Positions 1 through 46,613 of a DNA stretch of 64,000 nucleotides are shown here, in pieces. The first letter of the stretch is position 1. The number at the start of each line of letters is the position of its first letter. Position numbers and translations under genes: made by a program. Under the pieces are notes generated by a model, which saw nothing but the letters and a program-made list of their open reading frames with translations, did no database searches and had not been told where the DNA came from. Source of the stretch: Tupaia tana (taxonomy: Eukaryota > Chordata > Mammalia > Scandentia > Tupaiidae); assembly GCA_026018925.1 (NCBI GenBank), contig JAKSZU010000009.1, positions 71,592,041-71,656,040 of the forward strand. The letters run 5' to 3'.

Positions 1-496
1 TGGTGTGGATGAACTGAGGGTGTTCCTGGCTGAAAGGGGGGTTCTGGCTGGGGTCCTGGGGCTGGGACAACTGGGGGGCATTCCTCCCTCGAAGATCCTG
101 GCCCAGGGGTCGAAAGATGTGAGTGTGTTGTGGATGAACTGAGGGCGTTCCTGGCTGAAAAAGGGGGGTCTGACCTGGGGGCCCGGGGCTGGAACTACTG
201 GGGGGCTGTCCTCCCTCGAAGATCCTGGCCCAGGGGTCGAAAGATGGGAGTGTAGTGTGGGTGAACTGAGGGCATTCCTGGCTGAAAGAGGGGGGTCAGT
301 CCAGGAGTCCTGGGCCTGGAATTACTGGGGGGCAGTCCTCCCTCGAAGATCCTGGCCCAAGGGTCGAATAATGGGAGTGTGATATGGATGAACTGAGGGC
401 ATTCCTGTGTGTTGCTCAGAAGAGAGAAATTTACAAATGAAAGATGTGGGTAACAGTACAGAGAAAAAAGAAAAGGAAAAAAAAATGTACCATGCT

Positions 497-776
497 GGGA
501 ACCAGCAGTTAGCATAATGGCTATGTCCCTGGACTCCCACGTAATCGACAGTGGTTCGCGTCTCGGACCCGGTGGCTTACAACTCACGCCGGGCGCGTGT
601 GCGTGCCCAAGATCCCGAGAGGAGAATGGAGGAGAAGGGATTGCGGCGTTACCATCCCCCCTGGGGGGTGATTTCTCGCTTTCTGTCTCTATGTCTCTCT
701 CTGTCTGTCTGGCGAGCGCATGCGCTCTATAGCGAAAAACCTCTCCAAAAAAAAAAAACAAAACAAAACAAAAAAA
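497..776 (+). mobile_element. tRNA-derived SINE, long type, inserted in the array
   Basis: The element starts GGGAACCAGCAGTTAGCATAATGG, so it carries a tRNA-like A box and, downstream, a B box in GGTTCGCGTCTC. It ends CCTATAGCGAAAAACCTCTCC plus an A-rich tail. A direct repeat GTACCATGCT flanks it at 487-496 and 777-786. It sits at the A-rich linker and is the only SINE I see in the 30-kb array. Confidence 0.92.
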
Positions 777-3700
777 GTACCATGCTGAAAGAGGGGGGTC
801 TGGCCTGGGGTCCTGGGGCTGGAACTACTGGGGGGCAGTCCTCCCTCGAATATACTGGCCCAGGGGTCGAAAGATGGGAATGTAGTGTGGATGAACTAAG
901 GGCATTCCTGGCTGAAAGAGGGGGGTCTGGCCTGGGGTCCCGGGGCTGGAACTACTGGATGGCAGTCCTCCTTCGAAGATCCTGGCCCAGGCGTCGAAAA
1001 ATGGGAGTGTGGTGTGGATGAACTGAGGGCGTTCCTGGCTGAAAAAGGGGGGTCTGGTCTGGGGGCCAGGGGCTGGAACTACTGGGGTGCAGTCCTCCCT
1101 CGAAGATCCTGGAGAAGGTGTCGAAAGATGGAAGTGTGGTTTGGATGAACTGAGGGCGTTCCTGGCTGAAAGAGGGGGTCTGGCCTGGGGTCCAAGGGCT
1201 GGAATTACTGGGGGGCAGTCCTCCCTCGAAGATCCTGGCCCAGGGGTCGAAAAATGGGATTGTGGTGTGGATGAACTGAGTGCGTTCCTGTGTGTTGATC
1301 AAAAGAGAGAAATTTACAAATGAAAGATGTGGGTAACAGGACAGAGTAAAAAAAAGGAAAAAAAATGTACCTGGCTGAAAGAGGGGGGTCTGGCCTGGGG
1401 TCCTGGGGCTGGAACTACTGGGGAGCCGTCCTCCCTCAAAGATCCTGTCCCAGGGGTCGAAAGATGGGAGTGTGGTGTGGATGAACTGAGGGCGTTCCTG
1501 GCTGAAAGAGGGAGGTCTGGCCTAGGGTCCCGGGGCTTGAACTACTGGAGGGCAGTCCTCCCACGAAGATCCTGGCCCAGGGGCCAAAAGATGGGAGTGT
1601 GGTGTGGATGAACTGAGGGCGTTCCGGGCTGAAAGAGGGAGGTCTGGCCTGGGTTCCCGGGTCAGGAAGTACTGGGGTGTAGTCCTCCCTTGAAGATCCT
1701 GGCCCAGGTTTCGAAAGATGGGATTGTGGTGTGGATGATCTGCGGGCGTTCCTGTGTGTTGATCAGAAGAGTGAAATTTACAAATGAAAGATTTGGGTAA
1801 CAGGACAGGGGGGAAAAAAAGGAAAAAAAATGTACATGGCTGAAAGAGGGGGGACAGGCCTGGGTTCCCAGGGCTGGAACTACTGGGGGCAGTCCTCCCT
1901 CGAAGATCCTGGCCCACGAGTCGTAAGATGGGAGTGTGGTGTGGATGAACAGAGGGCGTTCCTGGGTGAAAGAGGGGGATCAGGCCTGGTGTCCCGGGTC
2001 AGGAACTACTGGGGGGCAGTCCTCCCTCGAAGATCGTGGCCCAGGGGTGGAATAATGGGAGTGTGGTGTGGATGAACTGAGGGCGTTCCTGTGTGTTGAT
2101 CAGAAGAGAGAAATTTACAAATGAAAAATGGGGTAAGAGGACAGAGAAAAAAATAAGGAAAAAAAATGTACCTGGCTTAAAGAGGGGTGTCTGACCTGGG
2201 GTCCCGGGGCTGGAAAGACTGGGGGGCAATCCTCCCTCGAAGATCCCTTCCCAGGGGTTGAACGATGGGAGTGTGGTGTGGATGAACTGAGGGCATTCCT
2301 GGCTGAAAGAGGGTGGTCTGGCCTGGGGTCCTGGGGCAGGAATTACTGGGGGGCAGTCCTCCCTCGAAGGTCCTGGCCCAGGGGTCGAAAGATGGGAGAG
2401 TGGTGTGGATGAAATGAGGGCGTTACTGGCTGAAAGGGGGGTTCTGGCTGGGGTCCCGGGGCTGGGACAACTGGGGGGCATTCTTCCCTCGAAGATCCTG
2501 GCCCAGGGGTCGAAAGATGTGAGTGTGTTGTGGATGAACTGAGGGCATTCCTGGCTGAAAGAAGGGGGTCTGGCTTGGGGTCCCGGTGCTGGAACTACTG
2601 GGGGGAAGTCATCCCTCGAAGATTCTGGCCCAGGGGTCTAAAGATGGGAGTGTTGTGTGGATGAGCTGAGGGCGTTCCTGGCTGAAAGAGGAGGGTCAGG
2701 ACTAGGGTCCCGGGGCTGGAACTACTGGGGGGCAGTCCTCCCTCGAAGATCCTGGACCAGGGGTCGAAAGATGGGAGTGTGCTGTGGATGATCTGAGGGT
2801 GTTCCTGGCTGAAAGAGGGGAGTCTGGCCTGCGGTCCGGGGGCTGGAACTACTGGGGGCCAGTCCTCCCTCGAAGATCCTGGCCCAGGGGTCGAACGTTG
2901 GGAGTGTGGTGTTGATGAACTGAGGGCGTTCCTGTGTATTGATCAGAAGAGGGAAATTTACAAATCAACGATGTGGGTTACAGGACAGAGACAAAAAATA
3001 GGAAAAAAATGTACCTGGCTGAAAGAGAGGGGTCTGGCTTGGGGTCCCGGGGCTGGAAAGACTGGGGGCCAGTCCTCCCTCAAAGGTCCTGGCCCAAGTG
3101 TTGAACGATGGGAGTGTGGTGTGGATTAACTGAGAGCGTTCCTGGCTGAAAGAGGGGGGTCTGGCCTGGGGTTCCAGGGCTGAAACTACTGGAGGGCAGT
3201 CATCCCTCGAAGATACTGACCCAGGGGTCGAAAAATGGCAGTGTGGTGTGGATGAACTGAGGGTGTTCCTGGCTGATAGAGGGGGGTCTGGCCTGGGGTC
3301 CCGGGGCTGGAACTACTGGGGGGCAGTCCTCCCTCGAAGATCATGGCCTAGGTGTCGAATGATGGGAGTGTGGTGTGGATGAACTGAGGGCGTTGCTGGC
3401 TGAAAGAGGGGGGTGTGGCCTGAGGTCGCAGGGCTGGACCTACTGGGGGGCAGTCCTCCCTCGAAGATCCTGGCCCAGTGGTCAAAAGATGGGAGTGTGG
3501 TGTGGATGAACTGAGGGGGTTCCTGGCTGAAAGAGGGGGGTCTTGCCAGGGGTCCCGGAGCTGGAACTACTGGGGGGCAGCCCTCCCTCGAAGATCCTAT
3601 CACAGGGATCGAAAGATGGGAGTGTGGTGTGGATGAACTGAGGGCATTCCAGGCTGAAAGAGGGGAGTCTGGGCTGGGGTCCCAGAGCTTTAACTACTGG

Positions 3701-5343
3701 GGGGAAGTCCTCCATGGAAGATCCTGGACCAGGGGTCGAAAGATGGGAGTGTGTTGTGGATGAAAGGAGGGAGTTTCTGGCTGAAAGAGGGGAGTCTGGC
3801 CTGGGGTCCTGGGACTTGAACTACTGGGGAGCAGTCCTCCCTCGAAGATCCTAGCCCAGGGGTCGAAAGATGGGAGTGTGCTGTGGATGAACTGAGGGTG
3901 AACCTGGCTGAAAGGGGGGGGGGGTCTGGACTGGGGTCCCGGGGCTGGAACTACTGGGGGGCATTCCTCCATCGAAGATCCTTGCCCAGGGGTTGAAAAA
4001 AGTGACTGTGTTGTGGATGAACTGAGGGCGTTCCTGGCTGAAGGAGGGGGGTCTGGCCTGGGGTCCCGGGGCATGAACTACTGGGGGCAGTCCTCCCGCG
4101 AAGATCCTGGCCCAGGGGTCGAAAGATTGAAGTTTGGTGTGGATGAACTGAGGGCGTTCCTGGCTGAAAGAGGGGGGCCTGGCCTTGAGTCCCGTGCCTG
4201 GAACTACTGGGGGGCAGTCCTCCCTCGAAGATCCTAGCCCAGGGGTCGAATAATGGGAGTGTGATGTGGATGAACTGAGGGCATTCCTGTGTGTTGATCA
4301 GAAGAGAGAAATTTACAAATGAACGATGTGGGTAACAGGAGAGAGAAAAAAGAAAAGGAAAAAAAATATAGCATGGTGAAAGAGGGGGGTTTGGCCTGGG
4401 GTCCTGGGGCTGGAACTACTGGGGGTCCGTCCTCCCTCGAAGATCCTGTCCCAGGGGTCGAAAGATGGGAGTGTGGTGTGGATGAACTGAGGGCGGTCCT
4501 GGCTGAAAGAGGGAGGTCTGCCCAGGGGTCCCGGGGCTGGAACTACTGGAGGGAAGTCCTCCCTCGAAGATTCTGGCCCAGGGGTCGAAAGATGGGAGTG
4601 TGGTGTGGATGAACAGAGGGTGTTCCTGGCTGAAAGAAGGGGGTCTGTCCTGGGGTCCCGGGGATGGAACAACTGGGGGTAGTCCTCCCTCGAAGATCCT
4701 GGCCCAGGGGTTGAAAGATGGGAGTGTGGTGTGGATGAACTGAAGGCGTTCCTGGCTGAAAGAGGGGGGTCTGGCCTGGGGCCCCGGGGCTGGAACTACT
4801 GGGGGGCAGTCCTCCCACGAAGATCCTGGCCCAGGGGTCGAAAGATGTGAGTGTGGTGTGGATGAAGTGAGGGCGTTCCTGTGTGTTGATCAGAAGAGAC
4901 AAAAATACAAATGAAAGATGTGGGTCACAGGACAGAGAAAAAAAAAGGAAAAAAAAATGTACCTGGCTGAAAGAGGGGTGCCTGGCCTGGGATCCCGGGG
5001 CTGGAACTACTGGGGGGCATTCCTCCCTCGAAGATCCTGGCCCAGGGGTCGAATGATGGGAGTGTGGTGTGGATGAACTGAGGGCATTCCTGGCTGAAAA
5101 AGGGGGGTGTGGCCTGGTGTCGTGGGGCTGGAACTACTGGGGGCAGTCCTCCCTCGAAGATCCTGGCCCAGGGGTCGAAAGGTGGGAGTGTGGTGTGGAT
5201 GAACTGAGGGCGTTCCTGGCTAAGGAGGGGGGTCTGGCCTGGGGTGCCGGGGCTGGAACTACTGGGGGGACGTCCTCCCTTGAAGATCCTGGCCCAGTGG
5301 TCGAAAGATGGGAGTGTGGTGTGGATGAACTGAGGGCGTTCCT

Positions 5344-5427
5344 GTGTGTTGATCAGAAGAGAGAAATTTACAAATGAAAGATGTGGGTAACAGGACAGAG
5401 AAAAAAAAAAGGAAAAAAAATGTACCT
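5344..5427. repeat. A-rich linker of the composite array unit (representative copy)
   Basis: About one third of monomers have this ~85-bp segment between GGGCGTTCCT and the next GGCTGAAAG. It reads GTGTGTTGATCAGAAGAGAG, then AAATTTACAAATGAA, then GTGGGTAACAGGACAGAG, an A tract broken by GG, and ATGTACCT. The A tract varies in length between copies. Monomer plus linker gives units of about 212 bp. Other examples begin near 1,287, 10,212 and 26,797. I see no counterpart in the short monomer array of the L1 at 46,391-46,613. Confidence 0.85.
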
Positions 5428-6220
5428 GGCTGAAAGAGGGGTGTCTAGCCTGGGATCCCGGGGCTGGAACTACTGGGGGGCACTCCTCCCTCGAAGATCC
5501 TAGCCCAGGTGTCGAAAGATGGGAGTGTGGTGTGGATGAACTGAGGGCGTTGCTGGCTGAAAAGGGGGGGTGTGGCCTGGGGTCGTGGGGCTGGAACTAC
5601 TGGGGGGCAGTCCTCCCTCAAAGATCCTGGCCCAGGGTTTGAAAGATGGGAGTGTGGTATGGATGAACTGAGGGCATTCCTGTGTGTTGATCAGAAGAGG
5701 GAAATTTACCAATGAGAGATGTGGGTAACAGGACAGAGAAAAAGAAAAAGGAAAAACAATGTACCTGGCTGAAAGAGGGGGGTCAGGCCTGGGGTCCCGG
5801 GGCTGGAACTACTGGGGGGCAGTCCTCCCTTGAAGATCCTGGCCCAGTGGTCTAAAGATGGGAGTGTGGTGTGGATGAATTGAGGGCGTTCCTGTGTGTT
5901 GATCAGAAGAGAGAAATTTACAAATGAACGATGTGGGTAACAGGAAAGAGAAAAAAAAAAAGGAAAAAAACATGTACCTGGCTGAAAGACGGGGGTCTTA
6001 CCTGGGGGCCCCGGGGCTGGAACTACGGGGGCTCAGTCCTCTCTCGAAGATCCTGGCCCAGGGGTCGAAAGATGGGAGTGTGGTGTGGATGAACTGCGGG
6101 CGTTCCTTTGTGTTGATCAGAAGAGTGAAATGTACAAATGAACGATGTGGGTAACAGGACAGAGAAAAAAAAAGGAAAAAAATGTACCTGTCTGAAAGAG
6201 GGTGGTCTGGCATGGGGTCC

Positions 6221-8380
6221 CGGGGCTGGTACTCCTGGGGGGCAGTCCTCCCTCTAAGATCCTGGCCCAGGTGTCGAAAGATGGGAGTGTGGTGTGGATG
6301 AACTGAGGGCGTTCCGGGCTGAAAGAGGGGGGTCTAGCCTGGGGTCCTGTGACTGGAAATACTGGGGGGCAGTCCTCCCTCGAAGATCCTGGCCCAGGTG
6401 TCGAAAGATGGGAGTGTGGTCTGGATGAACTGAGGGCGTTCCTGGCTGAAAAAGGGGGGTGTGGCCTGGGGTCACGGGGCTGGAACTGCTGGGGGGCAGT
6501 CCTCCCTCGAAGATCCTGGCCCAGGGGTCGAAAGATGGGAGTGTGGTGTGGATGAACTGAGGGCGTTCCTGGCTGAAGGAGGGTGGTCTGGCCTGTGGTG
6601 ATGGGGCTGGAACTACTGGGGGGCAGTCCTCCCTCGAAGATCCTGGCCCAGGGGTCGAAAGATGGGAGTGTGGTGTGGATGAACTGAGGGCATTCCTGGC
6701 TGAAACAGGGGGGTCTAGCCTGGGGTCCTGGGGCTGGAAATACTGAGGGGAAGTCCTCCCTCGAAAATTCTGGCCCAGATGTCGAAAGATGTGAGTGTGG
6801 TGTGGATGAACTGAGGGTGTTCCTTTGTGTTGATCAGAAGAGAGAAATTTACAAATAAAAGATGTGCGTAACAGGACAGAGAAAAAGAAAAAGGAAAAAA
6901 AATGTACCTGGCTCAAAGAGGGGTGTCTATCCTGGGGTGCTGGGGCTGGAACTATTGGGGGGCAGTCCACCCTCGAAGATCCTGGCCCAGGGGTCGAAAT
7001 ATGGGAGTGTGCTGTGGATGAACAGAGGGTGTTCCTGGCTGAAAGAGGGGGGTCTGTCCTGGTGTCCAGGGGCTGGAACTACTAGGGGGCGGTCCTCCCT
7101 CCAAGATCCTGGCCCAGGGGTCAAAAGATGGGAGTGTGTTTTGGATGAACTGAGGGCGTTCCTGGCTGAAAGAGTGGGGTCTGGCCAGGGTTGCCGGGCC
7201 TGTAATTACTGGGGGGCAGACCTCCCATGAAGATCCTGGCCCAGGGTTTGAAAGATGGGAGTGTGGTGTGGATGAACTGAGGGCGCACCTGTGTGTTGAT
7301 CAGAAGAGAGAAATTTACCAATAAGAGGTGTGGGTAACAGGACAGAGAGAAAGAAAAAGGAAAAAAAATGTACCTGGCTGAAAGAGGGGGGTCTGGCCTG
7401 GGGTCCCGGGGCTGGTACTACTGGGGGGCAGTCCTCCCTTGAAGATCGTGGTCCAGTGGTCGAAAGATGGGAGTGTGCTGTGGATGAACTGAAGGCGTTC
7501 CTGTGTGTTGATCAGAAGAGAGAAATTTACAAATGAACGATGTGGGTAACAGGAAGGAGAAAAAAAAAAGGAAAAAAAAATGTACCTGACTGAAAGAGGG
7601 GGGTCTGGCCTGGGGTCCCGGGGCTGGAACTACTGGGGAGCAGTCCTCCCTTGAAGATCCTGGCCCAGTGGTCGAAATATGGGAGTGTGGTGTGGATGAA
7701 CTGAGGGCATTCCTGTGTGTTGATCAGAAGAGAGAAATTTACAAATGAACGATGTGGGTAACAGGAGAGAGAAAAAAGAAAAGGAAATAAAATATACCAT
7801 GGTGAAAGAGGGGGTTTGGCCTGGGGTCCTGGGGCTGGAACTACTGGGGGTCCGTCCTCCCTCGAAGATCCTGTCCCAGGGGTCGAAAGATGGGAGTGTG
7901 GTGTGGATGAACTGAGGGTGTTCCTGGCTGAAAGAGGGAGGTCTGCCCAGGGGTCCCAGGGCTGGAACTACTGGGGGGAAGTCCTCCCTCGAAGATCCTG
8001 GCCCAGGGGTCGAAAGATGTGAGTGTGGTGTGGATGAAGTGAGGGCGTTCCTGTGTGTTGATCAGAAGAGAGAAATTTACCAATAAGAGGTGTGGTAACA
8101 GGAAAGAGAAAAAGAAAAAGGAAAAAAAATGTACCTGGCTGAAAGAGGGGGGTCAGGCCTGGGGTCCCTGGGCTGGAACTACTGGGGGGCAGTCCTCCCT
8201 TGAAGATCGTGGTCCAGTGGTCGAAAGATGGGAGTGTGGTGTGGATGAACTGAAGGCGTTCCTGTGTGTTGATCAGAAGAGAGAAATTTACAAATGAACG
8301 ATGTGGGTAAGAGGAAAGAGAAAAAAAAAAAAGGAAAAAAAATATACCTGACTGAAAGAGGGGGGTCTGGCCTGGGGACC
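6221..8380. repeat. 2.16-kb nested repeat, copy 1
   Basis: A block marked by GGCTGGTACTCCTGG, then GTTCCGGGCTGAAAG (6,313) and CCTGTGACTGGAAATACTGG, recurs 2,160 bp later (8,473) and again in the second 8-kb block. It contains about a dozen monomers, both plain and linker-bearing. It is a higher-order unit nested inside the 8-kb one. Confidence 0.85.
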
Positions 8381-10240
8381 CCGGGGCTGGTACTCCTGGG
8401 GGGCAGTCCTCCCTCTAAGATCCTGGCCCAGGTGTCGAAAGATGGGAGTGTGGTGTGGATGAACTGAGGGCGTTCCGGGCTGAAAGAGGGGGGTCTAGCC
8501 TGGGGTCCTGTGACTGGAAATACTGGGGGGCAGTCCTCCCTCGAAGATCCTGGCCCAGGTGTCGAAAGATGGGAGTGTGGTCTGGATGAACTGAGGGCGT
8601 TCCTGGCTGAAAAAGGGGGGTGTGGACTGAGGTCACGGGGCTGGAACTACTGGGGGGCAGTCCTCCCTCGAAGATCCTGGCCCAGGAGTCGAAAGATGGG
8701 AGTGTGGTGTGGATGAACTGAGGGCGTTCCTGGCTGAAGGAGGGTGGTCTGGCCTGTGGTGATGGGGCTGGAACTACTGGGGGGCAGTCCTCCCTCGAAG
8801 ATCCTGGCCCAGGGGTCGAAAGATGGGAGTGTGGTGTGGATGAACTGAGGGCATTCCTGGCTGAAACAGGGGGGTCTAGCCTGGGGTCCTGGGGCTGGAA
8901 ATACTGAGGGGAAGTCCTCCCTCGAAAATTCTGGCCCAGATGTCGAAAGATGTGAGTGTGGTGTGGATGAACTGAGGGTGTTCCTTTGTGTTGATCAGAA
9001 GAGAGAAATTTACAAATAAAAGATGTGCGTAACAGGACAGAGAAAAAGAAAAAGGAAAAAAAATGTACCTGGCTCAAAGAGGGGTGTCTGTCCTGGGGTG
9101 CTGGGGCTGGAACTATTGGGGGGCAGTCCTCCCTCGAAGATCCTGGCCCAGGGGTCGAAATATGGTAGTGTGCTGTGGATGAACAGAGGGTGTTCCTGGC
9201 TGAAAGAGGGGGGTCTGTCCTGGTGTCCAGGGGCTGGAACTACTGGGGGGCGGTCCTCCCTCCAAGATCCTGGCCCAGGGGTCAAAAGATGGGAGTGTGT
9301 TTTGGATGAACTGAGGGCGTTCCTGGCTGAAAGAGTGGGGTCTGGCCAGGGTTGCCGGGCCTGTAATTACTGGGGGGCAGTCCTCCCATGAAGATCCTGG
9401 CCCAGGGTTTGAAAGATGGGAGTGTGGTGTGGATGAACTGAGGGCGCACCTGTGTGTTGATCAGAAGAGAGAAATTTACCAATAAGAGGTGTGGGTAACA
9501 GGACAGAGAAAAAGAAAAAGGAAAAAAAAATGTACCTGGCTGAAAGAGGGGGGTCTGGCCTGGGGTCCCAGGGCTGGTACTACTGGGGGGCAGTCCTCCC
9601 TTGAAGATCGTGGTCCAGTGGTCGAAAGATGGGAGTGTGCTGTGGATGAACTGAAGGCGTTCCTGTGTGTTGATCAGAAGAGAGAAATTTACAAATGAAC
9701 GATGTGGGTAACAGGAAAGAGAAAAAAAAAAGGAAAAAAAAAATGTACCTGACTGAAAGAGGGGGGTCTGGCCTGGGGTCCCGGGGCTGGAACTACTGGG
9801 GAGCAGTCCTCCCTTGAAGATCCTGGCCCAGTGGTCGAAATATGGGAGTGTGGTGTGGATGAACTGAGGGCATTCCTGTGTGTTGATCAGAAGAGAGAAA
9901 TTTACAGATGAACGATGTGGGTAACAGGAGAGAGAAAAAAGAAAAGGAAATAAAATATACCATGGTGAAAGAGGGGGTTTGGCCTGGGGTCCTGGGGCTG
10001 GAACTACTGGGGGTCCGTCCTCCCTCGAAGATCCTGTCCCAGGGGTCGAAAGATGGGAGTGTGGTGTGGATGAACTGAGGGCGTTCCTGGCTGAAAGAGG
10101 GAGGTCTGCCCAGGGGTCCCAGGGCTGGAACTACTGGAGGGAAGTCCTCCCTCGAAGATCCTGGCCCAGGGGTCGAAAGATGTGAGTGTGGTGTGGATGA
10201 AGTGAGGGCGTTCCTGTGTGTTGATCAGAAGAGAGAAATT
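8381..10240. repeat. 2.16-kb nested repeat, copy 2 (shorter right end)
   Basis: This matches 6,221-8,078 with a constant 2,160-bp offset. Divergence begins near 10,240, where this copy reads TTTACAAATGAATGATG and copy 1 reads TTTACCAATAAGAGG. The match includes the rare AAATAAAAGATGTGCGTAAC linker variant (6,852 and 9,014). Confidence 0.83.
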
Positions 10241-13200
10241 TACAAATGAATGATGTGGGTAACAGGAAAGAGAAAAAAAAAAAAGGAAAAAAAATGTACC
10301 AGACTGAAAGAGGTAGGTCTGGCCTGGGGTCCCCGGGCTGGAACTACTGGGGGGCAGTCCTCCCTTGAAGATCCTGGCCCAGTGGTCGAAAGATGGGAGT
10401 GTGGTGTGGATAAACTGAGGGCGTTCCTGTGTGTTGATCAGAAGAGAGAAATTTACAAATGAACGATGTGGGTATCAGGAAAGAGAAAAAAAAAAAGGAA
10501 AAAAATGTACCTGACTGAAAGAGGGGGGTCTGGCCTGGGGTCCCAGGGCTGGAACTACTGGGGGGCAGTCCTCCCTTGAAGATCCTGACCCAGTGGTCGA
10601 AAGATGGGAGTATGGTGGGGATGAACTGAGGGTGTTCCTGTGTGTTGATCAGAAGAGAGAATTTTACAAATGAACGATGTGGGTAACAGGAAAGAGAAAA
10701 AAAAAAAGGAAAAAAAATGTACCTGACTGAAAGAGGGGGGTCTGGCCGGGGGCCCCGGGGCTGGTACTACTGGGGGGCAGGCCTCCCTCTAAGATCCTGG
10801 CCCAGGGGTCGAAAGATTGAAGTTTGGTGTGGATGAACTGAGGGTCTTCCTGGCTGAAAGAGGGGGCTCTGGTCTGGAGTCCCATGCCTGGAACTACTGG
10901 GGGGCAGTCCTCCCTCGAAGATCCTGGCCCAGGGGTCGAATAATGGGAGTGTGATGTGGATGAACTGAGGGCATTCCTGTGTGTTGATCAGAAGAGAGAA
11001 ATTTACGAATGAACGATGTGGGTAACAGGAGAGAGAAAAAAGAAAAGGAAAAAAAAATGTACTATGGTGAAAGAGGGGGGTTTGGCCTGGGGTCCTGGGG
11101 CTGGAACTACTGGGGGGCCTTCCTCCCTCGAAGATCCTGTCCCAGGGGTCGAAAGATGGGAGTGTGGTGTGGATGAACTGAGGGCGTTCCTGGCTTCAAG
11201 GGGGAGGTCTGGCCAGGGGTCCCAGGGCTGTAACTACTGGAGGGCAGTCCTCCCTCGAAGATCCTGGCCCAGGGGCCGAAAGATGGGAGTGTGGTGTGGA
11301 TGAACTGAGGGCGTTCCTGGCTGAAAGAGGGGGGGTCTGGCCTAGGGTCCCGGGATGGAACAACTGGGGGTAGTCCTCCCTTGAAGATCCTGGCCCAGGG
11401 GTCGAAAGATGGGAGTGTGGTGTGGATTAACTGAGAGCGTTCCTGGCTGAAAGAGGGGGGTCTGGCCTGGGGTTCCAGGGCTGAAACTACTGGAGGGCAG
11501 TCATCCCTCGAAGATACTGACCCAGGGGTCGAAAAATGGCAGTGTGGTGTGGATGAACTGAGGGTGTTCCTGGCTGATAGAGGGGGGTCTGGCCTGGGGT
11601 CCCGGGGCTGGAACTACTGGGGGGCAGTCCTCCCTCGAAGATCATGGCCTAGGTGTCGAATGATGGGAGTGTGGTGTGGATGAACTGAGGGCGTTGCTGG
11701 CTGAAAGAGGGGGGTGTGGCCTGAGGTCGCAGGGCTGGACCTACTGGGGGGCAGTCCTCCCTCGAAGATCCTGGCCCAGTGGTCAAAAGATGGGAGTGTG
11801 GTGTGGATGAACTGAGGGGGTTCCTGGCTGAAAGAGGGGGGTCTTGCCAGGGGTCCCGGTGCTGGAACTACTGGGGGGCAGCCCTCCCTCGAAGATCCTA
11901 TCACAGGGATCGAAAGATGGGAGTGTGGTGTGGATGAACTGAGGGCATTCCAGGCTGAAAGAGGGGAGTCTGGGCTGGGGTCCCAGAGCTTTAACTACTG
12001 GGGGGAAGTCCTCCATGGAAGATCCTGGACCAGGGGTCGAAAGATGGGAGTGTGTTGTGGATGAAAGGAGGGAGTTTCTGGCTGAAAGATGGGAGTCTGG
12101 CCTGGGGTCCTGGGACTTGAACTACTGGGGAGCAGTCCTCCCTCGAAGATCCTGGCCCAGGGGTCGAAAGATGGGAGTGTGCTGTGGATGAACTGAGGGT
12201 GAACCTGGCTGAAAGGGGGGGGGGTCTGGACTGGGGTCCCGGGGCTGGAACTACTGGGGGGCATTCCTCCATCGAAGATCCTTGCCCAGGGGTTGAAAAA
12301 AGTGACTGTGTTGTGGATGAACTGAGGGCGTTCCTGGCTGAAGGAGGGGGGTCTGGCCTGGGGTCCCGGGGCAGGAACTACTGGGGGCAGTCCTCCCGCG
12401 AAGATCCTGGCCCAGGGGTCGAAAGATTGAAGTTTGGTGTGGATGAACTGAGGGCGTTCCTGGCTGAAAGAGGGGGGCCTGGCCTTGAGTCCCGTGCCTG
12501 GAACTACTGGGGGGCAGTCCTCCCTCGAAGATCCTAGCCCAGGGGTCGAATAATGGGAGTGTGATGTGGATGAACTGAGGGCATTCCTGTGTGTTGATCA
12601 GAAGAGAGAAATTTACAAATGAACGATGTGGGTAACAGGAGAGAGAAAAAAGAAAAGGAAAAAAAATATAGCATGGTGAAAGAGGGGGGTTTGGCCTGGG
12701 ATCCTGGGGCTGGAACTACTGGGGGTCCGTCCTCCCTCGAAGATCCTGTCCCAGGGGTCGAAAGATGGGAGTGTGGTGTGGATGAACTGAGGGCGGTCCT
12801 GGCTGAAAGAGGGAGGTCTGCCCAGGGGTCCCGGGGCTGGAACTACTGGAGGGAAGTCCTCCCTCGAAGATTCTGGCCCAGGGGTCGAAAGATGGGAGTG
12901 TGGTGTGGATGAACAGAGGGTGTTCCTGGCTGAAAGAAGGGGGTCTGTCCTGGGGTCCCGGGGATGGAACAACTGGGGGTAGTCCTCCCTCGAAGATCCT
13001 GGCCCAGGGGTTGAAAGATGGGAGTGTGGTGTGGATGAACTGAAGGCGTTCCTGGCTGAAAGAGGGGGGTCTGGCCTGGGGCCCCGGGGCTGGAACTACT
13101 GGGGGGCAGTCCTCCCACGAAGATCCTGGCCCAGGGGTCGAAAGATGTGAGTGTGGTGTGGATGAAGTGAGGGCGTTCCTGTGTGTTGATCAGAAGAGAC

Positions 13201-14311
13201 AAAAATACAAATGAAAGATGTGGGTCACAGGACAGAGAAAAAAAAAGGAAAAAAAAATGTACCTGGCTGAAAGAGGGGTGCCTGGCCTGGGATCCCGGGG
13301 CTGGAACTACTGGGGGGCATTCCTCCCTCGAAGATCCTGGCCCAGGGGTCGAATGATGGGAGTGTGGTGTGGATGAACTGAGGGCATTCCTGGCTGAAAA
13401 AGGGGGGTGTGGCCTGGTGTCGTGGGGCTGGAACTACTGGGGCAGTCCTCCCTCGAAGATCCTGGCCCAGGGGTCGAAAGGTGGGAGTGTGGTGTGGATG
13501 AACTGAGGGCGTTCCTGGCTAAGGAGGGGGGTCTGGCCTGGGGTGCCGGGGCTGGAACTACTGGGGGGACGTCCTCCCTTGAAGATCCTGGCCCAGTGGT
13601 CGAAAGATGGGAGTGTGGTGTGGATGAACTGAGGGCGTTCCTGTGTGTTGATCAGAAGAGAGAAATTTACAAATGAAAGATGTGGGTAACAGGACAGAGA
13701 AAAAAAAAAGGAAAAAAAATGTACCTGGCTGAAAGAGGGGTGTCTAGCCTGGGATCCCGGGGCTGGAACTACTGGGGGGCACTCCTCCCTCGAAGATCCT
13801 AGCCCAGGTGTCGAAAGATGGGAGTGTGGTGTGGATGACCTGAGGGCGTTGCTGGCTGAAAAAGGGGGGTGTGGCCTGGGGTCGTGGGGCTGGAACTACT
13901 GGGGGGCAGTCCTCCCTCAAAGATCCTGGCCCAGGGTTTGAAAGATGGGAGTGTGGTGTGGATGAACTGAGGGCATTCCTGTGTGTTGATCAGAAGAGGG
14001 AAATTTACCAATGAGAGATGTGGGTAACAGGACAGAGAAAAAGAAAAAGGAAAAACAATGTACCTGGCTGAAAGAGGGGGGTCAGGCCTGGGGTCCCGGG
14101 GCTGGAACTACTGGGGGGCAGTCCTCCCTTGAAGATCCTGGCCCAGTGGTCTAAAGATGGGAGTGTGGTGTGGATGAATTGAGAGCGTTCCTGTGTGTTG
14201 ATCAGAAGAGAGAAATTTACAAATGAACGATGTGGGTAACAGGAAAGAGAAAAAAAAAAAGGAAAAAAAAATATACCTGACTGAAAGAGGGGGGTCTGGC
14301 CTGGGGGCCCC

Positions 14312-30288: not shown

Positions 30289-31545
30289 CCCATTTAGTAC
30301 TTTTTAAAAAGCTATTCTAATATTGATTAATTCTTTCACTTTTTAAATATCTGACAATGATTTTATTCATTCGTCCCATGTGAAGGATAATCTTGCTGGA
30401 TATAGTATTCTTGGTTGAAATTGTTTTTCTTTTACTATTTTAAATATGTCGACACATTCTTTTCTTGCCTGCATTGTTTTGTTTGAGAGGTCTGATGATA
30501 ACCTTTGTAAGTGACTTGACATTACTTTCTTGCCTTTTTTTAGAATCTTGTCTTTGTCTGTAATTTTGATAAATCTGTCTATGATGTACTGTGGAGAGTA
30601 TCTTCTTATGTTGATTCTGATTGGGGTCCTTTGTATTTCTTGGTTCTGCATATCTGAGTGCCTGTCTAGATTTGGGAAATATTTTGCAAGTATTTCATGG
30701 AATAGATGTTCTATCTCTTTGTCTGATTCTTCACCTTCTGGACCACTATTATTCAGATATTTGGGCATTCAATATTGTCTAGTGTTTCCCATATGTTGTC
30801 CTCATTTTCTTCTTATTTTTCATTATTTTTGGTGGTTTTATCTAAGTCAGAGGTTTTGTTTTCGAGATCAGAGATTCTGTCTCCTGTATGGTCCAATCTT
30901 CTATTAGTACTTTTGAGAGAGGTCTTGATTTCCTGTATTACTGTCTTCATCATTAGAAGTTCTGATTACTTCTTTTCTATGTTGTCTCTCTCTCTCCCTT
31001 TAAATCCTGAAAAGACTTCCTCTTCTCTGTCACCATGAATATTCTGAATTCTTTTTCTGGCATTCCTGTAAATTCTTTTGTGCTATCTGTGGTTGAAGAA
31101 GAACTGTGCTGTTCCATTGGAAGAGAGGTGTTTCCTTGTTTTCCCATATTTCTTGTGCCTCTGGGCTGGTTTCTAACTATCTGATGATTTTTACACTTCT
31201 TTCCACTTTTCTGGTGTTTACCCTTTTGTGTTAGGGGAGAAGAAGAGCTCTATTTCTCAGACATGTTTATGTTAGAGGGCCTTATCTTCCAATCAGAGAA
31301 GTATGTATATAGCCAACTTTAGGTGTTGCTTCCTTTCCCAGTCGCTCAGTACCAGGTGCACCTGGGGCTGAACTGGAGCGATTTAACTGAAAGAGGATGT
31401 AAGAGTTGCAAACTATGAAATCTCAAAATAATCTTGGGCAGTCCAAAGGCAGCATGAAGTCTGATGCAGTCTTCCATCCTCAATTTGTCTCCCTCACTGC
31501 TGCCTCTCCCTGCTCCATGACTGCAGGCTTGAGGAATTAATGGCG
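30289..31545 (-). mobile_element. L1-type fragment (ORF1 and probable 5' UTR)
   Basis: Minus-strand translation of 30,768-30,367 reads as the C-terminal half of L1 ORF1p: ENLFHEIL-like, NQEIQRTPIRIN, TMQARKE and KEKQFQPRILYPARLSF. N-terminal ORF1 remnants extend to about 31,140. The remaining ~400 bp to 31,545 is probably its 5' UTR and does not resemble the satellite monomer. ORF1 is cut at 30,289, short of its expected C-terminus, exactly where the satellite array begins. Several frameshifts make it a dead copy. Confidence 0.85.
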
Positions 31546-36735: not shown

Positions 36736-36739
36736 TTTT

Positions 36740-37914: not shown

Positions 37915-37950
<36 letters not shown>

Positions 37951-38129: not shown

Positions 38130-38213
38130 AATTATTCCTATTTTTGAGGTTTGTAATTGTGACCTAGAAAGGTTACCTTACTTGACAAATAAAATAAGAA
38201 AGAAGTAAATTAT

Positions 38214-38663: not shown

Positions 38664-38836
38664 GGGGGTCAGCAGGTGGTATGGTGGTTGAGGTGCTGGA
38701 TTCCTACATGATCAACTACAACTTGATTCCTGAATCTGGTGGGTTGCTTTTTCATTTCCCACTTCCTCTCTGTCTCTCCCTGGTGATAACATGTACCCTA
38801 TAGCAAACTTAATAATAATAACAATAAAATAAATAA
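38664..38836 (+). mobile_element. tRNA-derived SINE, short head with long-type end
   Basis: GGGGGTCAGCAGGTGGTATGG opens the tRNA-like head. GGGTTGCTTTTTCATTTCCCA resembles the short type, but TGTACCCTATAGCAAACTTA is the long-type 3' end. It lacks the long-type middle domain, so it is either a deletion or an intermediate form. Confidence 0.65.
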
Positions 38837-38993
38837 ACCTTACACAGTTTTATATTTGTCAAGCCCTTCTCCTGAGAGTTTGAAGAGCTTCCAGATCTAC
38901 TTTCTTCCTCCCCACACTGCAACCTGAGAAGAAAGAAAGTTACATGTATAAGAAGTAGTAAATAAAAAGAAGAAAATTTAAAAATATAAAGCT

Positions 38994-39798: not shown

Positions 39799-39804
39799 GA
39801 ATGT

Positions 39805-40710: not shown

Positions 40711-40850
40711 TTTTTTATTCTTTTTTTTCTTTTTTTTACTTTTATTATTATTTTTTCATTCCATTTTCTTCCATACAATCAATCACATTAGTATTTGTCT
40801 TACAAAATGGATAAACAGGTGAATATTTCTCCCTAGTACTGTTGATGAAA

Positions 40851-43800
40851 CTACAAAATATCTTCAACAGATAATATCACACCTCTTTGTGCCATTAATG
40901 CTTTGCCTCCCTGTCCCTCCCCCAATTGTCCTTCCTCAGACCCTCCTCTTTCACACACACTATATCTGGTATTTACATCTATATACAGCGTTTCTATATC
41001 CTTTAGACAATTAGTTTCAGTCATAGAGTGCAGACAGTATATATTAAGTGGGGACATACAATGCCTCTCCTTCATAGCATGGCTTGCTTCACTCAGCAGT
41101 GAGTCTTCCATATTCATCCATTTCCTTTCAAAAGCCAGGGTTTTGTTGTTTTTTATGGATGAACAGTATTCCATTGAGTATATGTGCCACAGTTTTTCTA
41201 ACCATCAGTTCATGGGCATTTGGGTTGTTTCCATGACTTAGCAATCGTGAAAAGTGCCACAATAAACATCGATGTGCAAGCACTTTTTCGATTAAGTATT
41301 CCTCTGTCCTTTGGGTAGATAACAAGGAGTGGGATTGCTGGATCATATGGTAGTTCTATTTGCACATTTTTGAGGAATCTCCAAATTGTTCTCCACAGTG
41401 GTTGGACCAATTTACATTCCCAACAGCAGTGTAAGAGAGTTCCCTTTTCACCACACTCCTGCAAGCACTTATCATTTTTTGTTTTTTTAATCTTAGACAT
41501 TCTGACTGGAGTTAGGTGATATCTCATTGTTGTTTTGATCTGCATTTCTCTTACAATGAGGGATCTTGAGCATTTTTTTCATATGCCTTTTAGCTATTCG
41601 TATGTCATCTTTAGAGAGTGGTTTTTTCAACTCATTCTCCCATCTTTTAATAGGATTGATCGTCTTTTTCAGGAACAGCTGCTTGAGTTCCTTGTGGATT
41701 CTGGTTATGAGTCCCTTATCTGATGCATAGTTTACAAAAATATTTTCCCATTCTGAGGGCTGTCTGTTCACACTTATCACTGTGTCTTTTGCCATGCAGA
41801 AACTTCTTAGTCTGATGTAATCCCAATTGTCTATTTTGGGGATTATCAACTGTGCATTGGGAGTCTTATTTAAGAAGTCTTTCCCTCCCCCAATGTCTCT
41901 CAGATTTTCCCCAGTGTTTTCCAGGAGCAGTTTTATAGTTTGAGTTCTTAGGGTTAGATCTTTGATCCAACTTGACTTTATTTTTGTCAGAGGTGAGAGG
42001 TAGGGATTCAGATTCATCTTTCTGCAAGTGGAGAACCAGTTTTGCCAGCACAATTTGCTGAAGAGGTTTTCCTTTTCCGACTGGATTGACTGGTACCCCT
42101 TGTCAAAAATCAGTTGGCTGTATGTTTGAACATTCATGTCTGGGGACTCTATTCTGTTCCATTGGTCCACCTGTCTGTTTCTGTGCCACTACCATGCTGT
42201 TTTGATTACCACAGCTTTGTAGTATATTTTTGGGTCAGGTAGTGAGATGCCACCCACTCCATTCTTCTTGTGCAGAACTGCTTTGGCAATACAGGGTCTC
42301 TTATGATTCCAGACAAACTTTATGATTGTCTTTCCTAGATCTGTGAAGAATGTGTCTGGTACTTTGATTGGCATTGCATTAAATAGGTAGATTAATTTGG
42401 GTAGAATTGCCATTTTGATTATATTAATTCTTCCAATCCAGGAACATGGGATGTCCTTCCACTTTTTTGTGTCATTTTCAATTTCTTTTTTTATCTTCTC
42501 ATAGTTTTCCTTGTGGAGGTTTTTAACTTCTTTGGTTAGATTTATCCCTAAGTATCTTATACTTTTTGTGGCTATGGTAAATGGAACAACTTTTTTCACT
42601 TCTATCTCAGTCTGCCTGTTGTTCGTATACAGAAATGCTATAGATTTCTGGATATTAATTTTGTATCCTGCAACGTAACTCTATTCATGCATTACTTCCA
42701 GAAATATTTTTATGGAAACCATTGGCTCTTCTATGTATACAATCATGTCATCTACAAATAGAGAGTTTCACCTCTTCTTTTCCTATTGGAATGCCTTTTA
42801 TTTTTTCCTCTTTTTTTTTTTTTTTTTTGGAGAGGTTTTTTTCGCTATAGGGCGCGTGCGCTCGCCAGACAGACAGAGAGAGACATAGAGACAGAAAGCG
42901 AGAAATCACCCCCCAGGGGGGATGGTCACGCCGCAATCCCTTCTCCTCCATTCTCCTCTCAGGATCTTGGGCACGCACGCACACGCGCCCGGCGTGAGTT
43001 GTAAGCCACCGGGTCCGAGACGCGAACCGCGGTCGACTACGTGGGAGTCCAGCGACATAGCCATTACGCTAACTGCTGGTTCCCTTTTTTCCTCTTTTCT
43101 GATAGCAGTGCCCAGGACTTCCAGTACTATATTGAAAAGGAGTGGAGAAAGTGGACATTGTTGTCTTGTACCCGTTTTTAGTGGAAAAGCTTTCAGCTTT
43201 TCTCCATTGAGGATGATGTTCGATATGGGGTTTTCATAGATACCTTTTATTGTGTTGAGAAATGACCCTTCTATGCCGATTTTGCGGAGAGTCTTGATCA
43301 TGAAGGGGTGTTGTATCTTATCAAATGCTTTTTCTGCATCAATCGATATGACCATATGGTTTTTATCTTTCTTCCTATTAATATGGTGTATTACATTTAT
43401 GGTTTTGCGTATGTTGATCCAACCTTGCATTCCTGGGATAAAGCCTACCTGATCATGATGTATAATCTTTTTTATAAGTTGTTGTATACGATTTGCTAGT
43501 ATCTTGTTGAGAATCTTTGCGTCTATATTCATCAGGGATATTGGTCTATAGTTTTCCTTCCTTTTCCTGTCCTTATCTGTTTTAAGGATAAGTATGACAG
43601 AGGCTTCATAGAATGAATTAGGGAGAGATTCACCCTTCTGGATCTTTAGAAATAACTTGAGCAGAATGGGGGTTAACTCTTCTTTGAAAGTTTTGTAGAA
43701 TTCAGAGGTGAATCCATCAGGGCCAGGGCTTTTCTTTGTTGGGAGGTTATTTATAACCGATTTGATCTCCTGGTTTGTTATGGACCTATTCAGGCTTTCT

Positions 43801-43896
43801 GTATCCTCCTGGCTCAATCTAGGTAGATTATATGTGTCCAGGAATTTGTCCATCTCATCCGGATTATCTTGTTTTTTTGTGTGTTTTTTGTTTTTT

Positions 43897-43927
<31 letters not shown>

Positions 43928-45202
43928 TTTTGCATACAGATGTTCATAGTATCCTCTAATAATGTTTTGTATTTCTACTTTGTCTGTTGTTATTTTGCCT
44001 GCTTCATTGCAGATCTGATTCACCTGGTTCTTTTCTCTCTTCTTCTTAATAAGTCTCGCTAGTGGTGCATCCATTTTGTTTATCTTTTCAAAGAACCAGC
44101 TTTTACTTTTATTTATTTTCTGTATAGTTCGTTTATTTTCTATTTCATTTATTTCTGCTCGTATCTTTATTATTTCCTTTCTCCTGGAGTTTTTTGGATC
44201 TTTTTGCTGTTGCTTTTCCAATTCTGTGAGGCATGATGTTAGGTGATCCATTTGCCTTCTTTCCATGCTCCTCTTATGTGCACTAATTGCTATTAACTTC
44301 CCTCTTATGACTTCTTTAGCAGTGTCCCAAAGATTATGGAAACTCGTGTCCTCAATGTCATTGGCTTCCATGAACCTTTTGATTTCAGTCTTTATTTCTT
44401 CAGTAGTTGTGGAGTCATTCAGGAGTAGGTTATTAAGTTTCCATGTATTAGAGTATTTTTGAGGATTTCTCTTGAAATTAAACTCAAGTTTAATTCCATC
44501 ATGGTCGGTGAAGATGCTGGGTAAAGTTTCTATGCTTTTGAATCTGTAGAGGCTTGCTTTGTGCCCAATGATGTGGTCAATCTTCGAGAATGTTCCATGT
44601 CGCAGCAAGAAAAAAGTGTATCTCGAGGTTTTGGGATGGAAAATTCGTTAGATGTCTGTTAAGTCCATTTGATTTATGATATCGTTTAGATCTTTTATCT
44701 CTTTACCTATTTTTTGTCTAGATGATCTATCCAGAGGGGATAGTGCAGTGTTGAGGTCTCCAACAATTAGTGTGTTGCAGTCTATCTCCCTTTTTAGATC
44801 TAGCAGTCTTTCCTTCACATATTTGGGTGCTCCTGTGTTAGGCACATAGATATTAATAAGCGTTATATCTTCTTGATCAATTGACCTTTTTACTACAATA
44901 TAGTGCCCTTCTTTGTCTCTTCAAACAGTTTTTGTTTTAAAGCCTATTTTGTCAGAGATTAGTATTGCAACTCCAGCTCTTTTTTGGTTCCCATTTGCAT
45001 GGAAAATCTTTTTCCAGCCCTTCACTTTCAGTCTATGTATATCTTTATCCATGAAGTAGGTTTCCTGTAGGCAGCAGATAGAGGGTTTTTGTTTTTCAAT
45101 CCATTCAGCCAGTCTGTGTCTCTTGATTGGAGAATTTAATCCATTATCATTCAATGTTATTATCGATGTTAATGGATCTGTCCTGACGTTTAAGTTGGCC
45201 AT
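40851..45202 (-). pseudogene. L1 ORF2 (endonuclease/reverse transcriptase) of the nested element
   Basis: The start MANLNVRTDPLTSIITLNDN leads into the endonuclease domain (NSPIKRHRLAEWIEKQ, SICCLQETYF, IVGDLNTALSPLDRSS, then [13 protein letters not shown] in another frame). The reverse transcriptase follows: [32 protein letters not shown] with the motif A aspartate intact, and [18 protein letters not shown] (usual [11 protein letters not shown]). The motif C region reads LFVDDMIVYIEEP, so the usual FADD is FVDD. A SINE (42,815-43,084) sits between them. The C-terminal part holds [14 protein letters not shown] and a cysteine-rich [20 protein letters not shown] segment. There are several frameshifts and an extra AAAAC-rich stretch near 43,865-43,932. 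Not functional. Confidence 0.92.
42815..43084 (-). mobile_element. tRNA-derived SINE, long type, inserted in ORF2
   Basis: Near-consensus copy: reverse complement starts GGGAACCAGCAGTTAGCG, has B box GGTTCGCGTCTC, and ends CCTATAGCGAAAAAAACC plus A tail. The TSD TTTTTTCCTCTTTT lies at 42,801-42,814 and 43,085-43,098. It interrupts ORF2 just upstream of the FVDD motif and is younger than the nested L1. Confidence 0.94.
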
Positions 45203-45246
45203 TGTCTTAGTTGCCTTTTACTCCTTTGTTTCTGGCTGTTACTTCT

Positions 45247-46213
45247 TTAGTTTTCCTGGAACAGTACTTTCTTCAAGGTTTCTTGGAGAGCTGGCCTGGT
45301 GCTGGCAAATTCTTTCAGGTTTTATTTGTCTGTGAAGATTTTAATCTTTTTTTTCCCATATGAAGGATAATCTTGCAGGATACAACAGTCTTGGTTGAAA
45401 TTGTTTCTCTCTTAACACTTTCAATACATCTTCCCATTCTTTCCTTGCTTGCATTGTTTCCGTTGACAAGTCCAGTGTCAGCCTGATGTGGTGTCCTTTG
45501 TAAGTCACTTGTCGTTTCTCTCTTGCCAGTTTTAGTATCTTATCTTTATCTGTGGTCTTAGCCAGTCTGGCTATGATATGCCTTGGGGAAGATTTTCTTG
45601 GGTTAATTCTATTTGGGGTCCTTTTTATTTCTTGGATCTCGATGCTTGAGTGTCTCTCTATACTTGAGAAATTTTCTTCCAAGATTTCATGGAATAGGTT
45701 TTCCATGCCCTTATTAGTTTCTTCATCTTCTGAGATACCAATTATTCGGATATTAGGACGTCTAATGGAATCTAGTATTTCTTGTATGTTATCTTCATTT
45801 TTTTTTGTTATTTTATCTATCTTTTTGGTGGTTTTCTCTAGGTCAGAAGTTTCATCTTCTACATCAGAGATTCGACCTTCAGAATGGTCTAATTGACTTT
45901 TAATACTTTCGAGAGAGTTTTTGATTTCCTGTATTACAGACTTCACCTCTAATAGTTCTGTCTTATTCTTCCTTAGCATGTCCTTTTCTTCCTTCATATG
46001 GTGGAAGGACTTTCTCATCTCCTGTAGTTCATTGTCTCTTTTCTGTTACAACTCATAGTATTTATTCAACATGAATGTTCTAAACTCTGTCTTGGACATT
46101 TTGGTAACGTCCTCTATTTTTTCAAGAAAAGGAAGGGAGTTACTGTGTTCTTTAGATGGAGACATATTTCCTTCTTTATTCAGACCTGAGGTTCTTCTTC
46201 TACTTCTAACCAT
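45247..46213 (-). pseudogene. L1 ORF1 of the nested element
   Basis: The start MVRSRRRTSGLNKEGNMSPS lies at 46,213. Codon 56 is TAA (46,048-46,046), after which the same frame is open to 45,341, giving KSFHHMKEEKDML, a coiled-coil-like LESIKSQLDHSEGRISDVED stretch, RPNIRIIGISEDEETNKG, IARLAKTTDKDKILKLAREK and KQFQPRLLYPARLSFIWEKK. A frameshift in the A run at 45,345-45,355 ends that frame early. In the shifted frame the usual C-terminus (LKEFASTRPALQETLKKVLF, then QEN and stop at 45,249-45,247) follows after one further stop. With one nonsense codon and one frameshift before the last domain it is only lightly damaged. Confidence 0.9.
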
Positions 46214-46613
46214 TGGGAGATGTGTTCCCTTTGGAAAACCTTTTATGAGAATGTTTCCTTGAATAGGAGCAAGTGTGTTTCCTTTTTGCTGTGGAATAAG
46301 GCAGCCAAAGTCTCTCTTCTATTGTTTAGCAATGTGATCCAAGAACAAGTATTCTCTTCAGGTGTACAAAGAAAAGTATCTACTTCTTCACTGGCTGAAA
46401 GAGGTGTCTCTGGCTTGGAGGTCCCGGGACTGAAGTTACAGGGGGCAGTCCTCCCTCGAAGTTCCTGGCCCAGGGGTCGAAAGATGGGAGTGGGGTGTTT
46501 GTAGGACTAAGGGTGTTCCTGGCTGAAAGAGGGGTCTCTGGCTTGGGGGTCCTGGGGCTGAAGTTACGGGGGGCAGTCCTCCCTCAAAGTTCCTGCCCCA
46601 GGGGTCAAAAGAT
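46214..46613 (-). promoter_or_regulatory. 5' UTR of nested L1 with satellite-type monomers
   Basis: On the plus strand CTGGCTGAAAG begins at 46,391 and again at 46,519, a 128-bp period. The blocks GGGGGCAGTCCTCCCTCGAAG, CCTGGCCCAGGGGTCGAAAG and ATGGGAGTG are those of the 30-kb array at 1-30,288. The second unit is cut at 46,613, which is the 5' end of the element. About 175 bp of non-monomeric leader separates the monomers from the ORF1 start. Monomers at L1 5' ends act as promoters in other mammals; activity here is inferred. Confidence 0.85.

What the first reader, a model, noticed from the sequence alone, without database searches (positions are those of the whole stretch)
1..46613. 30-kb satellite shares its monomer with an L1 5' UTR promoter
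The array monomer (period ~127 bp) and the 5' UTR monomers of the L1 at 40,711-46,613 (period 128 bp, 46,391-46,613) align over their whole length in the same orientation, including CAGTCCTCCCTCGAAG and CCCAGGGGTCGAAAGATGGG. By eye they look about 85% alike. Mammalian L1s often carry tandem 5' monomers (well known in mouse), but usually a handful, not ~190. Either an L1 promoter was amplified into a satellite, or an L1 recruited a satellite as promoter.
Basis: partly seen in the sequence, partly recalled or inferred. Interest (0 to 1): 0.88.

Follow-up and report, generated by a model that had tools for sequence, protein, structure and literature searches.

The report
Giant promoter array of one L1
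The supposed 30-kb satellite is part of a 50-kb stretch of promoter repeats belonging to a single L1 jumping gene whose coding part lies just outside the window, which shows how a mobile element's promoter can grow into satellite-like DNA on the spot.

Summary
In detail: the array monomer and the 5' monomers of the L1 at 40,711-46,613 are 193/226 (85%) identical, same orientation. But the array is not a separate satellite. Left of the window it runs on to 50.0 kb (319 A units of ~127 bp, 110 B units of ~84 bp, one SINE) and ends at the tether and ORF1 of a second, minus-strand L1. That L1 and its array, 55.5 kb together, are bracketed by a perfect 17-bp target-site duplication inside an older L1: one L1 insertion with a giant 5' UTR. 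Blocks up to 5.8 kb recur inside at 96-98.5% identity, and 281 of 295 A units have their nearest relative within the array; six young relatives read to their far end have 3-7 units. Best reading: expansion in place after insertion. More exist: 67.9 and 51.6 kb (sampled, not read through), ~23, >=21.7 and >=11.9 kb, each joined to an L1. The carrier contig has XIST, so is taken as the X. The longest mouse case seen in print has 50 monomers (~11 kb). Promoter-to-satellite is supported; capture is not. Promoter activity is untested, the genome census is incomplete, and the species is unknown.

The parts
1..30288 (-). In-window part of the giant L1 5' UTR array: 194 A units (~127 bp) and 65 B units (~84 bp). 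The whole array is C1197:71,572,355-71,622,328 (49,974 bp, 319 A + 110 B); tether C1197:71,572,140-71,572,354 and L1 body C1197:71,566,814-71,572,139 lie left of the window.
484..783 (.). Single SINE insertion, the only large interruption of the array
   Evidence: 300 bp not covered by A/B units; 94% match to the SINE inside the window L1
30185..30288 (-). Outermost unit, ending at A position 104 (...GGAGTGT|): the L1's 5' end
   Evidence: same register in the three other arrays of >=20 kb whose far end was read
30289..30305 (.). Right copy of the 17-bp target-site duplication CCCATTTAGTACTTTTT; left copy at C1197:71,566,797-71,566,813, directly before the poly-T of the L1 3' end
   Evidence: shuffles of the left flank gave at most 12 bp in 300 trials
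30306..31027 (-). Right part of the older L1 that was the target; joined to the left flank it aligns to another L1 with no gap at the junction
40711..46613 (-). The second L1 (the one in the finding), of an older lineage, without B unit and with little or no tether, itself inserted in another L1
46391..46613 (-). Its two 5' monomers (A positions 2-109 and 1-96)

Best explanation
A young L1 with an ordinary tandem-monomer promoter (3-7 units, partial ones included, in six young relatives read to the far end) inserted by target-primed reverse transcription into an older L1 on what is taken to be the X chromosome. Its 5' UTR then grew in place, by unequal exchange and/or break-repair copying of multi-kilobase blocks, to 429 units (319 A + 110 B; 50.0 kb). 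The same happened separately in other members of this L1 subfamily. Each A unit probably carries its own transcription start near A position 104. SHOWN: linkage to the L1 body, target-site duplication, continuous empty site, shared 5' register in the largest arrays, block duplications, locus-specific variants, short-array relatives in the same clade. INFERRED: growth after rather than before insertion, independent growth in the relatives, the exchange mechanism, and promoter function.
For: The array abuts tether and L1 body (92-95% to the window L1). A 318-aa ORF1 frame has both L1 ORF1p Pfam domains, and one ORF2 piece has RVT_1. Perfect 17-bp TSD round the 55.5-kb unit; joined flanks align across the junction. 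The outermost unit ends at A104, as in the three other arrays of >=20 kb whose far end was read: C297, C1197:109.4, C419; in all, 17 of 26 loci with a readable far end (those three included) end at A96-107, a span of 12 of 127 positions. Internal duplications of 5.8, 5.1 and 3.1 kb at 98.1-98.5%; 26,577 of 49,974 bp lie in self matches of >=500 bp at >=96%. Nearest relative inside the array for 281 of 295 A units (65% expected from group sizes), median distance 1.6% inside against 7.1% outside. A marked two-unit block is at 100% only here; best elsewhere 92%, among the 40 of 1966 candidates scored. In the body tree giant and short arrays mix in one clade (100/97). All 33 array loci whose proximal end I examined are joined to L1 sequence (C364: tether only; 8 of the 33 were picked with a tether query).
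Against: No reads were available, so the assembly of the array is unverified. Monomers are ~8% from the young consensus while the body near the tether has only 1.4-1.6% private changes, so age and drift alone do not explain the array; faster mutation or inherited diversity is needed. Clean TSDs were found for 2 of 4 large arrays (17/17 and 14/14); C297 has 14/17 by eye and C419 is unresolved. The two 7-9-kb arrays end at A91 and A89, not A104. Two of the eight young controls, L088 (in the same small group as the giant) and L090, were not read to their far end; an exact 35-bp monomer match, found 43 times in the giant, occurs 0 and 2 times there, so they are probably short. The genome searches scored only the best 40, 40, 13 and 40 of 2831, 2295, 1612 and 1966 candidates.
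Confidence: 0.88

Rival explanations
1. The L1 inserted with its giant array already present: a ~55-kb RNA was copied whole from a giant source element.
For: The array ends at the same start register as short L1s, and it is more diverged than the body, as an inherited old array would be.
Against: No other scored locus shares the marked block variant (best elsewhere 92%, 40 of 1966 candidates scored). The nearest rows in the body tree have a short array (L092), an array not read to its end (L088) or a different large array (C839, whose 9 sampled units are all nearest to each other). Reverse transcription of 55 kb is far beyond known L1 products (recalled, not tested).
Confidence: 0.06
2. Capture: an L1 recruited an existing satellite as promoter.
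For: L1s are known to recruit unrelated 5' UTRs (PMC5872511, passages seen).
Against: No free-standing array among the 25 examined loci not chosen by a tether query; an older L1 lineage already has the monomer; the giant array's units are mostly nearest to one another. It stays possible for the deep origin of the first monomer, and unexamined array loci exist.
Confidence: 0.04
3. Assembly artefact: the array was inflated by false tandem joins.
For: 5 kb of N (gap or withheld) start just right of the window; no reads could be examined.
Against: The long internal copies differ by 1.5-4%, not 0%; TSD and flanks close on both sides; two more arrays of this size class, sampled at many points, stand elsewhere.
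Confidence: 0.05

Closest known systems
Mouse L1Md tandem-monomer promoters (A, Gf, Tf); longest in mm10 has 50 A monomers, chr3:6,296,898-6,308,206 (PMC6454616, passages seen)
   Same: Monomers, then non-monomeric tether, then ORF1; variable copy number; the extreme case was attributed there to unequal crossing-over.
   Different: Here 429 units in 50.0 kb, and 67.9 and 51.6 kb elsewhere; two unit types of 127 and 84 bp instead of ~200-bp monomers; multi-kb block duplications. That paper says tandem repeats near the L1 5' end were seen only in mouse. Homology to mouse monomers was not tested.
L1-derived satellites: common cetacean satellite (L1 3' end) and Phodopus PROsat (ORF2) (PMC9659126, PMC6947457, passages seen)
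   Same: L1 sequence as the source of tandem repeats.
   Different: There the source is the 3' end or ORF2; here it is the promoter, and the array is still the 5' UTR of a TSD-bracketed L1.
Satellites from internal tandem repeats of other elements (Tetris TIR-220 of Drosophila, PMC5857280; PisTR-A from the Ogre 3' UTR, PMC9659126; passages seen)
   Same: Short internal tandem repeats seed long arrays.
   Different: Not L1; here the intermediate stage, still inside the element, is seen, with a size series from a few units to 68 kb.
X-linked macrosatellite DXZ4 (PMC3081327, PMC3491370; title and start of abstract only)
   Same: Large tandem array on the X.
   Different: No sequence relation tested; CTCF binding not tested.

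Membership tests
LINE-1 (L1) insertion | ORF1p and reverse transcriptase domains in the body | tested here: met
   Transposase_22 (5.8e-30) and Tnp_22_dsRBD (5.8e-23) on the ORF1 frame, RVT_1 (2.2e-10) on an ORF2 piece; two of the four frames scanned had no match; the ORF list shows no single long ORF2 frame, so this copy is broken there
LINE-1 (L1) insertion | Target-site duplication and oligo(A) tail | tested here: met
   17/17 bp TSD next to a short poly-T on the + strand; empty site continuous
L1 with tandem-monomer 5' UTR (mouse type) | Monomers - tether - ORF1 order and variable monomer number | tested here: met
L1 with tandem-monomer 5' UTR (mouse type) | Promoter activity of the monomers | not testable with these tools
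   Only indirect: the 38-bp block round A104, with a YY1-like CCATCTT on the sense strand, is the longest identical block between old and young monomer consensus; inside the array that heptamer is not unusually conserved (rank 42 of 121)
L1 with tandem-monomer 5' UTR (mouse type) | Sequence homology to mouse A/G/T monomers | not tested
   No mouse monomer was compared
Satellite DNA | Long head-to-tail array with local homogenisation | tested here: met
Satellite DNA | Exists free of the source element | tested here: not met
   The 25 examined array loci not chosen by a tether query are all joined to L1 sequence; other array loci were not examined

The most novel reading that the evidence does not exclude
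One young L1 subfamily of this mammal repeatedly turns its own promoter into satellite in place, by copy-based repair that is itself mutagenic: arrays of >=20 kb are far more diverged than their L1 bodies and raise substitution in the unique tether beside them (a mutational halo), and the large X-linked arrays might act as new chromatin landmarks on the X.
Probability: 0.22. Interest if true: 0.82.

Novelty: new variant of a known kind. Interest (0 to 1): 0.66.

Why it matters
It catches satellite birth midway: the tandem array is still inside a TSD-bracketed L1, and the genome holds a size series from a few units to 68 kb. That makes it possible to ask how arrays start, how fast they grow, whether growth mutates neighbouring DNA, and whether 400 promoter copies are silenced or used. 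The shared 5' register also points to the L1 start site from sequence alone.

Tried and rejected
Satellite capture, a retrotransposed giant RNA, and false assembly are weighed under rivals. A conserved YY1-like motif as the reason for amplification: it lies in the most conserved block between subfamilies but is not specially conserved inside the array, so it is only a hint at promoter function. Array length as an inherited subfamily trait: a first tree put all seven large-array L1s in one clade (100/100), but its short-array rows came from other, mostly older L1s; with eight young controls picked by tether and first-unit similarity (seven entered the tree; L087 had too little body) large and short arrays mix. 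Species: an ORF1p search gave no close named mammal (best hit 68% identity, labelled Streptomyces narbonensis, probably contamination); a colugo was considered from recalled SINE features only, two paper searches gave nothing useful, and it is not claimed. Papers: ten searches (one search found none). In their listings, and in passages of six papers, I saw no L1 promoter array above the mouse 50-mer; the library is open-access only and the rest was not read, so this is weak evidence of absence.

The halo test went through several versions; tether against body private changes, arrays of >=20 kb (C1197:71.6, C297, C1197:109.4, C839, C419) p = 0.0015, 0.11, 0.028, 0.0029, 0.0006; without CpG sites 0.0055, 0.38, 0.068, 0.0011, 0.0007; none of 8 short controls under 0.05, but those were picked by tether similarity. 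One search showed that the tether also looks more variable in older L1s, against the idea. One search, polarised with seven older short-array L1s not picked by tether (L021, which lacks most of the tether, was left out, as were C442, C364 and the oldest lineage): tether/body ratio 2.9 for the five >=20-kb arrays (55/915 against 62/3036), 0.8 for two 7-9-kb arrays, 1.4 for short young, 1.1 for short old; row by row p = 0.013, 0.096, 0.095, 0.0013, 0.0007., singletons only: 2.6 (30/915 against 39/3036), 0.8, 0.4, 0.9. It is post hoc and from five arrays.
Full report
WHAT WAS CHECKED. The window is C1197:71,592,041-71,656,040 of a 2.95-Gb genome with 1198 contigs. The array and the monomers at 46.4-46.6 kb are as described: 193 of 226 aligned columns identical, same strand, both quoted strings present. 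Within the window the array has 194 A units (~127 bp) and 65 B units (~84 bp). Coordinates below are window coordinates; negative numbers lie left of the window.

THE ARRAY BELONGS TO AN L1. Reading 80 kb to the left shows that the array begins at -19,685 and is 49,974 bp long: 319 A and 110 B units, never two B units in a row, with one large interruption, a SINE at 484-783. At its left end follow a 215-bp tether and an L1 body on the minus strand, 92-95% identical to the window L1. The body has a 318-aa ORF1 frame with both L1 ORF1p domains and a piece of ORF2 with RVT_1; no single long ORF2 frame is listed, so this copy is broken there. A perfect 17-bp repeat stands directly beside the L1 poly-T at -25,243 and directly after the last monomer at 30,289; shuffled flanks reached at most 12 bp in 300 trials. 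The flanks joined at the TSD align to another L1 (76% identity, 47 gap columns elsewhere) with no gap at the junction. So 55.5 kb is one L1 insertion into an older L1, of which 50 kb is 5' UTR array.

THE 5' END IS SHARED. In the array the outermost unit stops at A position 104. The same stop was found in the three other arrays of >=20 kb whose far end was read: C297, C1197:109.4 and C419. Among 26 loci with a readable far end (28 entries, two being repeats of a locus; those three included, the window's giant not), 17 stop at A96-107 and 9 elsewhere: A53, 78 (two), 89 (three), 91, 113 and 127. The 9 include the two arrays of 7-9 kb (A89 and A91). These are ends of local alignments, so a few bases of slack must be allowed. 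I read the register as the transcription start lying in each A unit; that is inference. The stretch round it is the longest identical block (38 bp) between the monomer consensus of old and young L1s and holds a YY1-like CCATCTT on the L1 sense strand. YY1 sites matter in human and mouse Tf L1 promoters (PMC11602158, passages seen); the motif label here is by eye.

THE ARRAY GREW IN PLACE. Blocks of 5.8, 5.1 and 3.1 kb recur at 98.1-98.5%, six shorter ones at 96.0-96.7%; 26,577 of 49,974 bp lie in self matches of >=500 bp. Of 295 near-complete A units, 281 have their nearest relative inside the array, against about 65% expected from group sizes; the other 14 are nearest to other loci. A marked two-unit block is found at 100% only here, 8.1 kb apart; the best match elsewhere is 92%, among the 40 of 1966 candidates scored. 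Monomers of young short-array L1s differ least among themselves (0.063) and are the nearest other group for each of the ten other groups, tied for C364, as expected if they resemble the founder; they were picked with a query from this element's tether and first units. In a tree of 626 bp of body (29 rows) the large-array L1s and seven young controls share one clade (100/97) and mix within it; L092 (partial A, B, and an outer A cut at A89) and L088 (not read to its far end) fall in the same small group as the 50-kb element (94/90), many forks being open. Six of the eight young controls were read to the far end and have 3-7 units, partial ones included. Length therefore seems to change quickly and separately.

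MORE OF THEM. C297:70,784,490-70,852,389 is a 67.9-kb array on an L1 body, with a ~7.86-kb period visible in exact matches; C1197:109,393,195-109,444,811 is 51.6 kb with a 14-bp TSD. These two were read at both ends and sampled inside (7 and 10 points, all monomers), not read through. Others, also not read through: C419 ~22.8 kb, C839 >=21.7 kb running off its contig, C442:4.33 Mb >=11.9 kb, C1197:105.0 Mb 9.0 kb, C531:129.3 Mb 7.1 kb. Thirty-three array loci, the giant included, were examined at the proximal end and all are joined to L1 sequence, C364 by tether only; eight of them were chosen with a query that includes the tether, so 25 are free of that bias. Other array loci listed were not examined, and the exact-match list shows the first 100 of 661 places. 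XIST maps to C1197:89.45 Mb, so I take C1197 as the X; two of the three arrays of >=50 kb would then be X-linked, too few for a claim of enrichment.

A SECOND PUZZLE. A units average ~8% from the young consensus, fairly evenly along the array (6-9% per block of 25 units), while the body near the tether has 1.4-1.6% private changes. Measured from the giant's own consensus, its units diverge by 14% at CpG sites and 6% elsewhere, short young units by 9.6% and 3.3%; the CpG excess suits germline methylation. ti/tv in the giant is low (0.69), though inherited and duplicated changes are counted many times there. The unique tether beside arrays of >=20 kb also has more private changes than the body (55/915 against 62/3036; singletons 30/915 against 39/3036), unlike older short-array L1s (33/1179 against 106/4261; singletons 14/1179 against 54/4261) or 7-9-kb arrays (6/363 against 24/1216). 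Two short controls show no gap against the giant's 215 tether columns, so long-read indel noise is an unlikely cause there. cuts the other way by showing a more variable tether in older L1s too. I hold this as a lead for mutagenic, copy-based expansion.

AGAINST WHAT IS KNOWN. Tandem-monomer L1 promoters are well known in mouse; the longest reported in mm10 has 50 monomers in 11.3 kb and was put down to unequal crossing-over (PMC6454616, passages seen). L1-derived satellites are known from the 3' end (cetaceans) and ORF2 (Phodopus) (PMC9659126, PMC6947457, passages seen). What looks new here is the size (4-6 times the mouse record), the recurrence in one subfamily, the block structure, and the intact link between array, L1 body and TSD. 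I call it a new variant of a known kind. The species is not identified.

Noticed in passing
tether, C1197:71,572,140-71,572,354, and the tethers of C297, C1197:109.4, C839 and C419: Unique sequence beside arrays of >=20 kb has, pooled, about 2.5-3 times the private substitution rate of the adjacent L1 body; not seen beside 7-9-kb arrays or in older short-array L1s. Post hoc, and one search is partly against it.
   Followed up: partly
array, -19,685 to 30,288: A units are ~8% from the young consensus with ti/tv 0.69 and many G>T changes, far more than the adjacent L1 body.
   Followed up: partly
B units (110 in the array): B units never stand next to each other, and a partial A plus one B sits beside the tether in 8 of 8 young controls, as if B+A(n) blocks were copied as wholes.
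   Followed up: partly
L017 1-5000 (C1197:71,656,041-71,661,040): 5,000 N (gap or withheld) begin exactly at the right end of the window.
   Followed up: no
C442:3.0-6.3 Mb: A 14-Mb contig with seven separate places carrying these monomers in the lists.
   Followed up: no
P0001: A protein labelled Streptomyces narbonensis is the closest hit to this L1's ORF1p (68%), probably mammalian contamination of a bacterial record.
   Followed up: no
window 42,812-43,084 and many other places: A ~270-bp SINE, probably tRNA-derived (by eye), is very frequent here and also interrupts the window L1 and the array.
   Followed up: no
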